Shown here: in pieces, positions 314 through 9,085 of the stretch | How the letters are laid out: every line of letters starts with the position of its first letter | How positions within the stretch are numbered: position 1 is the first letter of the stretch | Origin: Planctomycetota bacterium | GTDB taxonomy: Bacteria; Planctomycetota; Phycisphaerae; WQYP01 | DNA length: 11,910 nt | Direction of reading: 5' to 3' | Assembly: GCA_021828925.1 (NCBI GenBank) | Contig: JAJZCT010000042.1 | Location: forward strand, 1 to 11,910 | Program-made: the position numbers and the translations under genes | Notes under the pieces: model-generated | Databases searched by the model: none | What the model saw: the letters and a program-made list of their open reading frames with translations, nothing else | Told to the model about the DNA's origin: nothing

Positions 314-377
314 AGCGAAGCGATTCCGAAGCCTTCTAACTCCTAACTTCTAACCCCTAACTCCTAGCCCCTAACTT
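314..377. repeat. Dispersed repeat copy 1 with six tandem heptamers
   Basis: Bases 336-377 are six tandem heptamers in exact 7-bp phase: CTAACTC, CTAACTT, CTAACCC, CTAACTC, CTAGCCC, CTAACTT. The preceding bases 314-335 plus the first heptamers match the reverse complement of 5055-5094 at 37 of 40 positions, so the unit is larger than the heptamer array and is present at least twice. It fills most of the gap between the two terminase genes. The last heptamer supplies the TAG stop codon of terminase small subunit (371-373). It resembles the intergenic heptanucleotide repeats of some bacterial genomes; function unknown. Confidence 0.8.
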
Positions 378-817
378 CCCCCAAGAAAATCCTCAATCCC
401 GCCGCTCTTTTCCGGAGCTGCCGCACTGACCCGGCTTCGCGCCGCGGCGGTCATGCCAAACTCGCTATACAGCCGGAGCAGCTGCGCCGATAAATCGCGG
501 TAAATGGCAACATACGCATTGCGGTTCCCCTCATCATCCACCATGCCATCACCGTCAATGTGCGATTTCGCCTGCTCCGCCAGGCTCTCCAACTCTGCCA
601 ATCGCGCCAGCGCCAGCGAATCGGCACTGGTGGCCACGCCACACGCGCCCAACTCGGAAATCAAACGATTCCATATTTCCAATTCCCTCGGCCGCAACTT
701 CCGCGGCGCCTGCGCCACGCCGCGCGGCTTAGGCTCCCGCGCGTTGATCTTTCGCTGCCCCGGGTTCCCCCTTAAAAGCTTCTGCGCAGTAGGTTTAGGC
801 TTGCGTCCCCGCATCAT
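371..817 (-). CDS. Phage terminase small subunit, P27 family
   Basis: This subunit recognises phage DNA and delivers it to the large subunit during packaging. The 148-residue protein opens with MMRGRKPKPT and LLRGNPGQRK, then REPKPRG, which is the basic RGNPGxR...EPxP signature of P27-type small terminases. The middle is helical (LRPRELEIWNRL..., ADSLALARLAELESL). The C-terminal part, FGMTAAARSRVSA, is the usual G-x-T-P/A-x-x-R-xR-V ending. The chosen start, ATG at 817, overlaps the stop of the HNH gene as ATGA; a start at 835 is possible but would overlap further. Size fits the family. HNH upstream and TerL downstream make the assignment firm. Confidence 0.9.
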   Translation of the reverse strand: MMRGRKPKPTAQKLLRGNPGQRKINAREPKPRGVAQAPRKLRPRELEIWNRLISELGACGVATSADSLALARLAELESLAEQAKSHIDGDGMVDDEGNRNAYVAIYRDLSAQLLRLYSEFGMTAAARSRVSAAAPEKSGGIEDFLGGS

Positions 818-3830: not shown

Positions 3831-3870
3831 ATGTAAAGAAATGTAAAGGAATCTAATGGAATGTAAAAAA
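3831..3870 (+). repeat. Four tandem decamers: candidate RHH operator over the early leader
   Basis: Four consecutive 10-bp units: ATGTAAAGAA, ATGTAAAGGA, ATCTAATGGA, ATGTAAAAAA. They start right after the -10 element and cover the transcription start, the ribosome binding site (AAGGA) and the ATG at 3856. The exact 10-bp spacing puts each unit on the same face of the helix, the arrangement used by cooperative RHH repressors such as MetJ or CopG. Confidence 0.75.
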
Positions 3871-4389
3871 ACCATGGGCAGTAATGTCGGGGTAAGGCCA
3901 TCGACAATGAAGAAGTTAATCGCTATTAAGCGGGCTCGCCGATGGCCATTCACAGAGGCCATCGATGCGATGGCCGACCGCGAGCTTGAGTTGATCGCGG
4001 CGGAGGCGTCTGCCCGCGCCGCCGGCTGTTCCCCGATTTACCCGTTTCACGATCCGCGCCGCCGGCGGCAGAATCCTCCGTTTCAGCCCGGCCTATCCGC
4101 GGCCTCTGGCGAGGAGCCATTGAAGCAAGCTGCCATTGCGGGCCGTTCAACACGCATGGACGCATCCTCGCCAGGGTCCGCGGATACGCACGAGATCCCT
4201 CCTGCACAAGGGCGTGCCGACGCATCAGACCCTCGGCACGCCCGTCAGGTGGAAGTGATATCACGCCGCAGCGGCGATGAGGAATCAACGGAATTTGACA
4301 GCGTGCCGCGCTGTGCCGGCTGCGGCCGACCGACCGATGACGATGGCCAGTGCAAGTTTTGCTCACGCGAGGTTGCCCATGACACTTAA
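3856..4389 (+). CDS. First early gene: basic N-terminus and C-terminal zinc ribbon, unknown function
   Basis: 177 residues, not recognised. The N-terminal 50 residues (RPSTMKKLIAIKRARRWPFTEAIDAMADREL) are basic and helical and could bind nucleic acid. Residues about 60-145 are Pro-, Ser- and Arg-rich and look disordered. The C-terminus has a zinc-ribbon knuckle pair, C153-x2-C156-x9-C166-x2-C169. As the first gene after the early promoter it is a candidate regulator or takeover factor, but nothing in it proves this. ATG at 3856 follows AAGGA by six bases, and both the ribosome binding site and start codon lie inside the tandem decamers, so a repressor there would block transcription. Its last codons overlap the next gene by 11 bases. 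Confidence 0.72.
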   Translation: MECKKTMGSNVGVRPSTMKKLIAIKRARRWPFTEAIDAMADRELELIAAEASARAAGCSPIYPFHDPRRRRQNPPFQPGLSAASGEEPLKQAAIAGRSTRMDASSPGSADTHEIPPAQGRADASDPRHARQVEVISRRSGDEESTEFDSVPRCAGCGRPTDDDGQCKFCSREVAHDT

Positions 4390-5054: not shown

Positions 5055-5137
5055 TTAGAAGTTAGGAGCTAGAAGGCTTTGGAACCGCTTCGCTGCTGCG
5101 TTGATTCCTTATTCTAACTCCTAACTCCTAGGTTCCA
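5055..5137. repeat. Dispersed repeat copy 2, inverted, with heptamers on both strands
   Basis: Bases 5055-5094 are the reverse complement of 314-353 with three mismatches in 40. Bases 5114-5134 then carry forward heptamers CTAACTC, CTAACTC, CTAGGTT. The two halves pair: GTTAGGAGCTAGAA (5061-5074) with TTCTAACTCCTAAC (5112-5125), one mismatch in 14. A second pair, TGGAACC (5080-5086) with GGTTCCA (5131-5137), crosses the first. A T7 run follows at 5143-5149. No coding potential was seen. Confidence 0.8.
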
Positions 5138-6505: not shown

Positions 6506-6538
6506 ATTGGCCGCAGAATAACGTGAACGGAAATGGGA

Positions 6539-7543
6539 ATGGATACACTTGATTTCCGACGGGGGCAATCCCGGCGAATCTACTCCAGCGCCAAATATGG
6601 CCGCCGCATCAATGCCGTCAGCGACTTTGCTGCCCGCCTGCTGGCCTGGGGTCTCATTCCAAACGCTGACGATTTCGGCAACATTGCTGGAGATCCCGCG
6701 GTATTGAAATGTGAGTGCTTTCCCATGCTGCCGTCCGCCACGCCCGAGAGGATCTCTGAAGCTCTTGCCGAGCTTGAATCCAATCGCCTGGTCGGGTCGT
6801 ACCAGCTGGGTCCAGATCGGTACATCCACGTGCACGGCCACAACGTCCTACAGCCCGCGCCCAAGAACGGACGAAAAATCCGTCGCTGGCCGCCGTCGCC
6901 ATGGGACAACGAAAGTGAACTTTCCTCCGATTCTGGGGAATCCGGGGGAATCCGGGGGAATCCGGGGGAATCCGGGGGAATCCAAGATCCACCAATCCCA
7001 GATTTGAAACCCATCGAAAATGGGGGAAATCTCGACGATTGGGGAATCCGGGGGAATCCGGGGGAATCCGGGGGCGACGGTCCCAAAGTGGTGCCCGTAA
7101 TAAGCAGCAGCAGCAGCAGCGTAATAAGCAAAGTAATAAGCAGCAGCAGCGCAAAAGCTCCGGCTGCTGCTGCTGAATTTTCAGAAGAGGGAGGCCTGAT
7201 TTCGCTGCGAGGTTGCGCCGAGTTAAGCATAGATCCAGATCAGGTCCTGCGGTTGAATGAGCTGCACACACGAGGCCAGGTGGCCGCGGCTATAGCGGCA
7301 CTTGCCCATCGCGTGAGAGGTGGCGAGCGCCTCCGAAATCCGCTAGGAATGCTTCGGAAAATGCTAGCGGAAGGCTACAGCCCGCCGGTGGGCAAAGCCG
7401 CACCGATCAGGAAAACCGAAACCGCCGAGGAATACGAGCTTCGCAAAGCCCCGATCCGCGCCGCCGAAGCTGCCAAGCTGGCCGCAGCGGTGCATGAGCC
7501 GTTTTCCGATCTGATGCCCAAGCACCTGAGGAGGTCAAAATGA
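6539..7543 (+). CDS. Phage replication initiator-like protein carrying an internal iteron array
   Basis: 334 residues. The N-terminal domain (about 8-110) looks like the winged-helix part of phage replisome organisers and DnaD-type replication proteins: RRIYSSAKYGRRINAVSDFAARL, LIPNADDFGNIAGDP, ERISEALAELESNRLV, then a strand pair YQLGPDRYIHVHGHN. A flexible Gly/Pro/Glu linker at 132-180 is encoded by the GGGGGAATCC iterons, followed by a Ser-rich stretch encoded by GTAATAAGC/AGC repeats. A C-terminal helical domain (220-334) follows. Lambda O has the same logic: N-terminal origin-binding domain, origin inside the gene, C-terminal loader contact. No helicase or primase gene is visible nearby, so host ones would be recruited. 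ATG 6539 has GGA eight bases upstream; 6533 is an alternative. The stop overlaps the next ATG as ATGA. Confidence 0.72.
   Translation: MDTLDFRRGQSRRIYSSAKYGRRINAVSDFAARLLAWGLIPNADDFGNIAGDPAVLKCECFPMLPSATPERISEALAELESNRLVGSYQLGPDRYIHVHGHNVLQPAPKNGRKIRRWPPSPWDNESELSSDSGESGGIRGNPGESGGIQDPPIPDLKPIENGGNLDDWGIRGNPGESGGDGPKVVPVISSSSSSVISKVISSSSAKAPAAAAEFSEEGGLISLRGCAELSIDPDQVLRLNELHTRGQVAAAIAALAHRVRGGERLRNPLGMLRKMLAEGYSPPVGKAAPIRKTETAEEYELRKAPIRAAEAAKLAAAVHEPFSDLMPKHLRRSK
6934..6983 (+). repeat. Iteron cluster A: GGGGGAATCC x 5
   Basis: TGGGGAATCC (6934-6943), then four perfect GGGGGAATCC copies at 6944, 6954, 6964 and 6974, all in exact 10-bp phase. The array lies within the replication gene and encodes a Gly/Glu/Ser/Pro linker. 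The 10-bp period cycles through all three frames, giving a 10-residue protein repeat per three DNA units. Confidence 0.95.
7040..7074 (+). repeat. Iteron cluster B: GGGGGAATCC x 3 plus a partial copy
   Basis: TGGGGAATCC (7040-7049), perfect copies at 7050 and 7060, then a broken GGGGG at 7070-7074. It starts with the same T variant and the same preceding GATT as cluster A. A diverged copy, GGGGGAAATC, lies at 7022-7031. Confidence 0.93.
7097..7174 (+). repeat. GTAATAAGC boxes and AGC/GCT hairpin (candidate origin unwinding region)
   Basis: GTAATAAGC occurs at 7097, 7121 and 7133, spaced 24 and 12 bp. An (AGC)6 tract (7103-7120) runs on from the first box. After the third box, AGC x4 (7139-7150) and GCT x4 (7163-7174) form a perfect 12-bp stem with a 12-base loop. 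In protein this gives Val-Ile-Ser plus Ser runs, then Ala runs. Confidence 0.85.
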
Positions 7544-8143: not shown

Positions 8144-9085
8144 ATGGGCGACAAATCAAAAATCAGTTGGACCGATGCCACCTGGAACCCGATCACAGGC
8201 TGCACGCGAGTGAGTGAAGGCTGCCGACACTGCTACGCCGAACAGCTTTCCGCCACGCGGCTGAAAGAATCACCGCGGTATCAAGGATTGGCGATTATGA
8301 CGCCGGCCGGCCCGCGCTGGACAGGAAAAATCAAACTTCATCACGAGCTGCTCGTGCAGCCGCTTCATTGGAAAAAACCCCGGCGAATCTTCGTCAACTC
8401 CATGAGCGATCTTTTTCACATCGAAGTTCCGTGGGGATTCATTGATCAGATTTTCGCCGTCATGGCGGCTTGCCCGCAGCACACTTTTCAGATTCTCACC
8501 AAACGGGGTGTGGGCATGAACCTCTGGTATGAGATGGCTGAACGGAGAGTGCGGAACACGGTCATTCCGGGAACCCGTGGCCGCGAGGGGACCGACGGTC
8601 ACCACGTATCTATGCCGCGTTGGCCGCTGCCCAACGTCTGGCTGGGTGTCAGCGTGGAAAACCAAGAGAATTGCGGGCGAATCTCCCAACTGCTCAAAAC
8701 CGCCGCGGCCGTGAGGTTCGTGAGCTTTGAGCCGTTGCTCGGGCCGATTGAGATGCGTTATCGCTGGCTCCCTGCCGCCGGCGACGCGACCGGGGCGATT
8801 GACTGGGTGATCGTCGGCGGAGAATCAGGGAACGCGGCGCGGCCGTTTGATCTCGCCTGGGCGGAGTCGATCCGCGATCAGTGCCGTGGCCGATGCGCGT
8901 TTTTCTTTAAGCAGGCTGGATCTCGCCCGGAGATAACGACCGCGGCGGGGGTTGCCCCGGTGGAGCTAAAGTCACGCAGCGGTTCAGATCCCGAGGAATG
9001 GCCCGACGATCTTCGCATCCAGGAGTTTCCGCGGCAAATGGCGGAGGTTGAAACGCTCGGACCCGGAGCGGAGGCGCACCGGTGA
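8144..9085 (+). CDS. Gp37/Gp68 family protein (DUF5131), radical-SAM-like
   Basis: The 313-residue protein begins with the family hallmark: SKISWTDATWNPITGC, then C20-x6-C27-x2-C30-Y, a three-cysteine set that could hold a 4Fe-4S cluster. Further landmarks: RIFVNSMSDLFH, FQILTKR, LPNVWLGVSVENQ, VRFVSFEPLLGPI, IDWVIVGGESG and CAFFFKQAG. These are the successive strands of a TIM-barrel-like fold and match Gp37/Gp68 proteins of mycobacteriophages and many prophages. The biochemical reaction of the family is not established to my knowledge; radical SAM chemistry is inferred from the cysteines. The insertion TRGREGTDGHHVSMPRWP is a variable loop. ATG 8144 follows AGGAG by 11 bases. It lies in the coupled operon, and its stop overlaps the next gene as GTGA. 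Confidence 0.9.
   Translation: MGDKSKISWTDATWNPITGCTRVSEGCRHCYAEQLSATRLKESPRYQGLAIMTPAGPRWTGKIKLHHELLVQPLHWKKPRRIFVNSMSDLFHIEVPWGFIDQIFAVMAACPQHTFQILTKRGVGMNLWYEMAERRVRNTVIPGTRGREGTDGHHVSMPRWPLPNVWLGVSVENQENCGRISQLLKTAAAVRFVSFEPLLGPIEMRYRWLPAAGDATGAIDWVIVGGESGNAARPFDLAWAESIRDQCRGRCAFFFKQAGSRPEITTAAGVAPVELKSRSGSDPEEWPDDLRIQEFPRQMAEVETLGPGAEAHR

What the first reader, a model, noticed from the sequence alone, without database searches (positions are those of the whole stretch)
6934..7074. 10-bp iterons inside the replication gene: candidate phage origin
Six perfect GGGGGAATCC copies and two with one mismatch form two clusters in exact 10-bp phase inside a gene that resembles a replication initiator. 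A 10-bp period is not a multiple of three, so the protein repeat arises only as a by-product; selection or amplification seems to act on DNA spaced by one helical turn. Lambda and related phages hold their origin iterons inside the initiator gene in the linker region, as here. Both clusters start with the same T variant after GATT, suggesting duplication of a defined element.
Basis: partly seen in the sequence, partly recalled or inferred. Interest (0 to 1): 0.8.

Follow-up and report, generated by a model that had tools for sequence, protein, structure and literature searches.

The report
Phage origin inside its initiator gene
A probable phage carries, in the middle of its replication-starter gene, DNA repeats spaced one helical turn apart, and related phages keep such repeats as DNA, which makes this stretch a strong candidate for the place where the phage begins to copy its genome.

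Summary
Confirmed: six perfect GGGGGAATCC and two one-mismatch copies lie at 6934-6983 and 7040-7069 in 10-bp steps, inside a gene (6533-7543) matching phage "replication initiation protein" families. They fall in a predicted disordered linker behind a winged-helix N-domain. Selection looks DNA-level: in 14 of 16 family genes (11 of 13 without near-copies) 10-bp periodicity exceeds protein-preserving codon shuffles (at most 6 of 300; window 0), and motif codons differ from the rest of the same genes. Three phased GAATCC words found 48 viral contigs; 30 have the array in an initiator-type ORF, and 31 of 34 ORFs of 150 aa or more match an initiator PHROG. A frame-keeping 9-bp spacing gave 0 of 58, a scrambled word 0 of 9. 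Linker DNA tracks the N-domain, not the C-end. An A-skewed weak tract follows the arrays. Best reading: a lambda/RepA_N-like in-gene origin with unusually short, one-turn iterons, shared by a diverse phage initiator family. Against: spacing is 10-12 bp in the wider set; one family gene fails outright; in bacterial genomes only 3 of 117 such arrays lie in these initiators; nothing is tested at the bench.

The parts
6533..7543 (+). Replication-initiator gene, 336 aa (334 aa from the second ATG at 6539)
   Evidence: ORF; phrog_1408 E=6.7e-8 and phrog_2149 E=2.8e-5, both 'replication initiation protein'; no Pfam match at E 0.1
6566..6892 (+). N-terminal winged-helix domain (residues about 10-118 of the 334-aa form), inferred iteron-binding domain
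6934..6983 (+). Iteron array 1: five decamers, 10-bp steps
7022..7031 (+). Degenerate decamer GGGGGAAATC between the arrays (one indel)
   Evidence: sequence; reading is inference
7040..7074 (+). Iteron array 2: three decamers plus a partial one
6932..7195 (+). Segment coding for the disordered linker (residues 132-219) that holds both arrays and the A-skewed tract
   Evidence: pLDDT below 50 for residues 132-184 and 186-219
7096..7158 (+). A-skewed low-complexity tract (GTAATAAGC/AGC repeats), inferred unwinding element
   Evidence: A minus T = 22 in the 60 bp from 7099 (27 A, 5 T), tied with 2869 for the largest of the window; least stable 40 bp of the gene start at 7098, but the least stable 60 bp start at 6979, between the arrays; 12-bp repeats 7096-7144; codons AGC 11/11 against 4/22, ATA 3/3 against 2/17, GTA 3/5 against 1/10 (p 0.08)
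7196..7378 (+). Helical C-terminal domain (residues 220-280), inferred to contact replication proteins
   Evidence: AlphaFold2 model; function is inference

Best explanation
The decamers are iterons of the phage's replication origin, placed inside the gene of their own initiator. The N-terminal winged-helix domain binds the GGNGAATCC-like decamers, one per helical turn and so on one face of the DNA, and builds a nucleoprotein array. The adjoining weakly paired DNA (the A-skewed simple-sequence tract, perhaps also the spacer between the arrays) then opens. The C-domain recruits the helicase loader or helicase. The array-coded stretch of the protein is a disordered linker whose amino acids matter little, so that the DNA is free to serve as origin. 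Shown here: the arrays, DNA-level conservation across relatives, association with the N-domain and with initiator genes, predicted disorder. Inferred: binding, opening, recruitment and origin activity.
For: Array real and non-random. Gene matches initiator families. Relatives: lag-10 self-match in the linker beyond protein-preserving codon shuffles in 14 of 16 family genes, 11 of 13 without the near-copies L002, L004, L041 (at most 6 of 300 shuffles reach it; window 0; L009 17, L057 149); lag 10 or 11 at up to 5 of 300 in 12 of 18 distant genes. All of these but L009 and the window were also found by an N-domain protein pattern, not by DNA. Codons in 13 genes: E=GAA 21/24 in the motif against 88/238 elsewhere in the same genes, S=TCC 20/24 against 76/284, N=AAT 15/16 against 58/179, I=ATC 15/15 against 109/166. 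DNA-only scan: 48 viral contigs; 30 of 48 have the array in an ORF with the A1 N-domain profile; of 34 distinct ORFs of 150 aa or more, 31 match phrog_1408. Controls: 9-bp spacing 0 of 58 ORFs with the N-domain, PHROG list led by tail-fibre families; scrambled word 9 contigs, 0 with the N-domain. N-domain similarity correlates with linker-DNA similarity (Spearman 0.46) but hardly with the last 150 bp (0.10) over 861 pairs of 42 genes. Arrays coincide with the disordered linker. A-skewed tract behind the arrays. L525, from a genome in the class of a Phycisphaerae record, has three phased decamers, lag 10 at 0 of 300, and an AAC-rich tract.
Against: No binding or replication assay. Initiator identity rests on profiles. 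No helicase or loader was recognised in this window among 17 ORFs scanned with PHROGs, of 85 listed. Spacing is not strictly 10: arrays at 11 and 12 bp also lie in initiators. L057 fails, L009 is borderline, and 6 of 18 distant genes do not pass at 5 of 300. 13 of the 48 viral contigs have no ORF of 150 aa over the array. In bacterial genomes 69 of 117 arrays lie in no such ORF and only 3 of 48 ORFs match phrog_1408 (3 of 117 by my profiles). 570 of 11,870 40-bp windows are less stable than the tract. Linker DNA could track the N-domain simply because the two are neighbours in the gene. Copies within a gene are not independent, so perfect repeats may partly reflect slippage.
Confidence: 0.78

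Rival explanations
1. Slippage minisatellite tolerated in a disordered linker: tandem amplification of a 10-bp unit without function.
For: Perfect copies within this window; disordered linker; simple repeats are common in these linkers; 12-bp arrays, which keep the frame, also occur in initiators, 14 of 66 ORFs.
Against: Core and codons recur in relatives whose matched part is only 34-41% identical (L051-L064); slippage in coding DNA should also give 9-bp arrays, but 0 of 58 such ORFs carry the N-domain; linker DNA tracks the N-domain.
Confidence: 0.1
2. Selection is on the peptide (GESGGIRGNP repeats) as a binding or spacer motif; the DNA repeats are the by-product.
For: The peptide motif recurs in relatives (consensus PGESGGIRGNPGESG).
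Against: Codon choice inside the motif differs from the same genes elsewhere and periodicity exceeds protein-preserving shuffles; L058 keeps the 10-bp phase with another peptide, and TCGCGAATCC and TGCGGAATCC arrays encode other peptides.
Confidence: 0.05
3. The decamers are operator sites through which the protein represses its own gene, not an origin.
For: A winged-helix protein and phased sites fit a repressor as well.
Against: Sites lie mid-gene; 9 of 13 cultured relatives fetched are annotated as replication initiation or replication protein, and in 4 of 13 a DnaC-like or DnaB gene follows within about 0.6 kb.
Confidence: 0.05
4. G-quadruplex element formed by the G runs.
For: Window and L001 match a G4 pattern.
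Against: Only 2 of 13 family linkers and 1 of 18 distant ones match.
Confidence: 0.02

Closest known systems
Phage lambda O gene / ori-lambda (passages of PMC7466680 and PMC5043065 seen)
   Same: Origin in the middle of the initiator gene; several iterons next to a tract that opens. (That lambda has the iterons upstream of the tract along the gene, as here, is recalled.)
   Different: Lambda iterons are inverted repeats that bind O dimers (PMC5043065); here they are 10-bp direct repeats. The window protein hits no O-like PHROG at E 0.1, although 7 of 34 array ORFs of relatives match phrog_678 'replication initiation O-like'. The tract is A-skewed simple sequence, not strongly AT-rich.
RepA_N plasmid initiators, pSK41 Rep (passages of PMC5703833 seen)
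   Same: Winged-helix N-domain of about 120 residues binding boxes in the centre of its own gene; central residues encoded by the ori are a dispensable linker; C-domain apparently host-specific.
   Different: No Pfam match for the window protein. pSK41 has four Rep boxes; here eight decamers of one turn each.
phrog_1408 / phrog_2149 phage replication initiation proteins
   Same: N-domain matches; 31 of 34 ORFs over 10-bp GAATCC arrays in viral contigs match phrog_1408.
   Different: The PHROG text names no origin; the arrays are described here from sequence.
Mycobacteriophage RepA-like initiators (passages of PMC7157519 seen)
   Same: Authors infer that ori lies within or next to repA.
   Different: They report no repeated motifs in the region between tail genes and parS-L; relation of those RepA proteins to this family was not tested.
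Replisome-organizer genes of lactococcal phages (TP901-1, Tuc2009; recalled, original papers not in the library)
   Same: As recalled, the origin lies inside the initiator gene with direct repeats.
   Different: Not checked here; one literature search gave no paper on it among the 12 listed.

Membership tests
phrog_1408 phage replication initiation protein | Profile match of the N-domain | tested here: met
   E=6.7e-8, residues 26-120
phrog_1408 phage replication initiation protein | Initiates replication in vivo | not testable with these tools
   no assay
Lambda O / in-gene phage origin | Sequence match to O-like initiator families | tested here: not met
   no O-like PHROG and no Pfam hit for the window protein at E 0.1
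Lambda O / in-gene phage origin | Iterons inside the initiator gene, in the linker | tested here: met
Lambda O / in-gene phage origin | Iterons that are inverted repeats | tested here: not met
   GGGGGAATCC direct repeats
Lambda O / in-gene phage origin | Adjacent AT-rich, easily opened tract | tested here: inconclusive
   A-T skew tied for the largest of the window, weakest 40 bp of the gene; but 570 of 11,870 40-bp windows are weaker and the weakest 60 bp lie between the arrays
RepA_N plasmid initiators | Pfam RepA_N domain | tested here: not met
   no Pfam match at E 0.1
RepA_N plasmid initiators | Winged-helix N-domain, ori-coded linker, C-domain | tested here: met
   model; winged-helix neighbours; that the linker is ori-coded is the inference under test
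RepA_N plasmid initiators | DnaD-like fold of the two domains | tested here: inconclusive
   not among the 50 listed neighbours, which does not exclude it

The most novel reading that the evidence does not exclude
There is a broad, so far undescribed class of phage origins, built inside initiator genes from one-turn iterons (10-12 bp, often with the core GAATCC) followed by a second simple repeat of 6-8 bp. N-domain and array travel together as a specificity cassette while the C-domain is exchanged independently. Such origins could be read off the genome sequence for many phages with no known ori.
Probability: 0.5. Interest if true: 0.75.

Novelty: new variant of a known kind. Interest (0 to 1): 0.6.

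Why it matters
Origins are known for few phages. If the reading holds, the initiator gene itself shows the origin, its iteron word and a likely opening tract in several phage families, including cultured phages of Gordonia and E. coli. It would also tie one winged-helix family to a readable DNA code (word and one-turn spacing), and give a clear case of DNA function overriding protein sequence inside a coding region.

Tried and rejected
No useful result: close relatives of the window in viral contigs by single protein (none) and in named phages by DNA (none); tRNA and Rfam (none); sequence search of solved structures with A1 and A2 (none). Foldseek gave no match at E 0.001 or better. A1 in six genomes holding planctomycete-titled loci: none.

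Rejected: G-quadruplex (2 of 13); GC-skew switch at the array; a strict 10-bp rule; GAATCC arrays as a sufficient origin marker in bacterial genomes. A resemblance of the second tract to DnaA-trios was considered from recall and dropped: repeats of 6, 7 and 8 bp with several words occur and no common trio was shown.

Weak points of my own tests. The profile nterm2 was trained on the same 10-bp ORFs, so its 33 of 34 is circular; the A1 profile (30 of 48 contigs) and PHROG (31 of 34 ORFs) are used instead. At 11 bp my profiles find only 6 of 35 ORFs (A1 profile alone 4 of 63 contigs); the rest rests on PHROG counts. Two giant ORFs of 58 were left out of the PHROG scan for 9 bp, and only 25 of 138 families were shown there. 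Pairs are not independent, L009 was left out and 4 of 46 genes had no domain hit. L065/L066/L070/L071 are close relatives. In one search no correction was made for testing 11 lags; lags 10 and 11 were the ones of interest. In one search the lowest of 31 window positions was taken and no protein-preserving null was used. Among 13 cultured phages (whole genes) 10 pass at lag 10 or 11 at up to 5 of 300 (Moorella, PapayaSalad and D14C do not), but in Panchino and Fishburne the lag-11 hit lies in the N-domain (Fishburne also at lag 10), and in Mock2, Yvonnetastic, EMoore, Phistory and Pickles13 it is by eye a repeat of about 5 bp counted twice; SoilAssassin, HK639 and IFTN7 have 11-bp repeats at or behind the end of the N-domain.

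Papers: passages only were seen of PMC7466680, PMC5043065, PMC7157519, PMC5703833 and PMC2647930; all others were search listings. That this class is not in print rests (open-licence papers only) and on listings, not full reading.

Full report
OBSERVATION. The window holds eight decamers (six perfect GGGGGAATCC, two with T first) in two clusters, 6934-6983 and 7040-7069, each in exact 10-bp steps; Tandem Repeats Finder sees 4.9 and 3.4 perfect copies of GGGGAATCCG. Ten matches at up to one mismatch in the window compare with 1.41 expected, and none of 200 shuffles reaches ten. The clusters are not in 10-bp register with each other (106 bp apart). The 'T variant after GATT' is only the base before the first GGGG.

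RELATIVES. 39 proteins were found, the window's own among them; the linker consensus is PGESGGIRGNPGESG, which is the decamer read in three frames. DNA was at hand for 34 distinct genes, 16 of the family proper and 18 distant. With each protein fixed and synonymous codons shuffled by the gene's own usage, lag-10 self-match in the linker exceeds the null in 14 of 16 family genes at up to 6 of 300 (11 of 13 without near-copies of L001); L009 is borderline (17) and L057 fails (149). Mean z is 3.6 at lag 10, 1.5 at lag 6, 1.4 at lag 12 and between -0.5 and 0 at lags 7-9, 13 and 14. Of 18 distant genes 12 pass at lag 10 or 11 at up to 5 of 300; L069, L072, L073, L075, L076 and L080 do not. All but L009 and the window were also found by an N-domain protein pattern, so the set was not picked by DNA. 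In 13 non-redundant genes the amino acids of the motif, chosen by peptide, use GAA 21/24, TCC 20/24, AAT 15/16 and ATC 15/15, against 88/238, 76/284, 58/179 and 109/166 elsewhere in the same genes (one-sided Fisher p 1.6e-6, 5.6e-8, 1.6e-6, 0.0026). So the DNA, not only the peptide, is kept. L058 keeps the phase with another peptide.

DNA-ONLY SCAN AND CONTROLS. Three GAATCC words at 10-bp spacing occur in 48 viral contigs. In 30 of 48 the array lies in an ORF with the A1 N-domain profile; 13 have no ORF of 150 aa over the array; of 34 distinct ORFs 31 match phrog_1408. Words include GGGGGAATCC, GGGTGAATCC, TCGCGAATCC and TGCGGAATCC. At 11 bp, 63 contigs, 26 without such an ORF, gave 35 ORFs: 10 match phrog_9474, 9 phrog_2447 and 5 phrog_8489, initiators and DnaD-like loaders (overlapping counts), 6 of 35 my profiles. 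At 9 bp (capped), 0 of 58 carry the N-domain, and the 56 scanned with PHROGs are led by tail-fibre families, 19 in phrog_366. A scrambled word at 10 bp gives 9 contigs and none with the N-domain. In bacterial genomes (capped at 117 loci) 69 arrays have no ORF of 150 aa, 3 of 48 ORFs match phrog_1408 and 3 of 117 my profiles: there the pattern alone does not mark an origin.

CO-VARIATION. Over 861 pairs from 42 genes, N-domain similarity correlates with linker-DNA similarity (Spearman 0.46) but hardly with the last 150 bp (0.10); for N-domain similarity 0.15-0.60 mean linker scores are 15-24 while C-end scores stay near 9. N-domain and linker behave as one cassette, as expected if one binds the other; mere neighbourhood in the gene could add to this.

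SECOND ELEMENT. Behind the arrays lies simple sequence. In the window its A-over-T excess (27 A, 5 T in 60 bp from 7099) is tied with one other place for the largest in 11.9 kb, and the least stable 40 bp of the gene start at 7098; the least stable 60 bp start at 6979, between the arrays. Its serines are AGC 11/11 against 4/22 elsewhere. In 9 of 13 family genes the 60 bp chosen behind the last ATCC are within the lowest 1.3% of the gene in complexity (not L001, L007, L009, L058; in L001 my rule set the end too late), and A exceeds T in 11 of 13. In 6 of 13 cultured phages a 7- or 8-bp, frame-breaking repeat behind the N-domain exceeds the codon null with z above 3. This fits an unwinding tract but does not show one.

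INDEPENDENT COPY. A search of 397 genomes in the class of a Phycisphaerae record found 2 matches, with at most 6 candidates scored in each genome. L525 has three phased decamers (lag 10 at 0 of 300) and an AAC-rich tract; its open frame is 178 aa and ends soon after the tract. For L526 my script's filter printed nothing. P0006 is named by its source as from a Tepidisphaeraceae bacterium. The host of the window is not known.

CULTURED RELATIVES. Of 13 regions fetched, 9 genes are annotated as replication initiation or replication protein, the others as DnaD domain protein, unknown, hypothetical and HNH endonuclease; a DnaC-like or DnaB gene follows in Mock2, D14C, Pickles13 and IFTN7.

COMPARISON. 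Lambda holds iterons and an AT-rich tract in the middle of O (PMC7466680, passages). pSK41 Rep, a RepA_N initiator, has a winged-helix N-domain binding four boxes in the centre of its gene, the ori-coded residues being a dispensable linker (PMC5703833, passages). Plasmid iterons are generally in helical phase (PMC5043065, passage). The present gene is read to work like these but is by profile a member of neither, and its iterons are short.

VERDICT. A candidate in-gene origin with one-turn iterons, well supported by sequence, untested at the bench.

Noticed in passing
window 333-378 and 5114-5130: Tandem heptamers CTAACTC and a CTAACCC-containing variant at two distant places, the first at the end of the small-terminase ORF.
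   Followed up: no
window 3831-3871: Imperfect 10-bp tandem repeat ATGTAAAGAA near the point where cumulative GC skew turns.
   Followed up: no
window 8144-9085: DUF5131 gene (phrog_2045) downstream of the initiator; Mycobacterium phage Panchino has a DUF5131 gene upstream of its initiator.
   Followed up: no
L012, L032, L048: 10-bp TGGGGAATCC arrays outside long ORFs, with CCTATCATTGA directly behind in similar contigs.
   Followed up: no
L408, L417, L451: Holophagaceae-titled genome contigs share an ORF of 337-373 aa with three phased GAATCC words and no initiator domain by my profiles.
   Followed up: no
viral loci L083-L145: 11-bp GGAATCC arrays, several of them inside other initiator and DnaD-like loader families.
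   Followed up: partly
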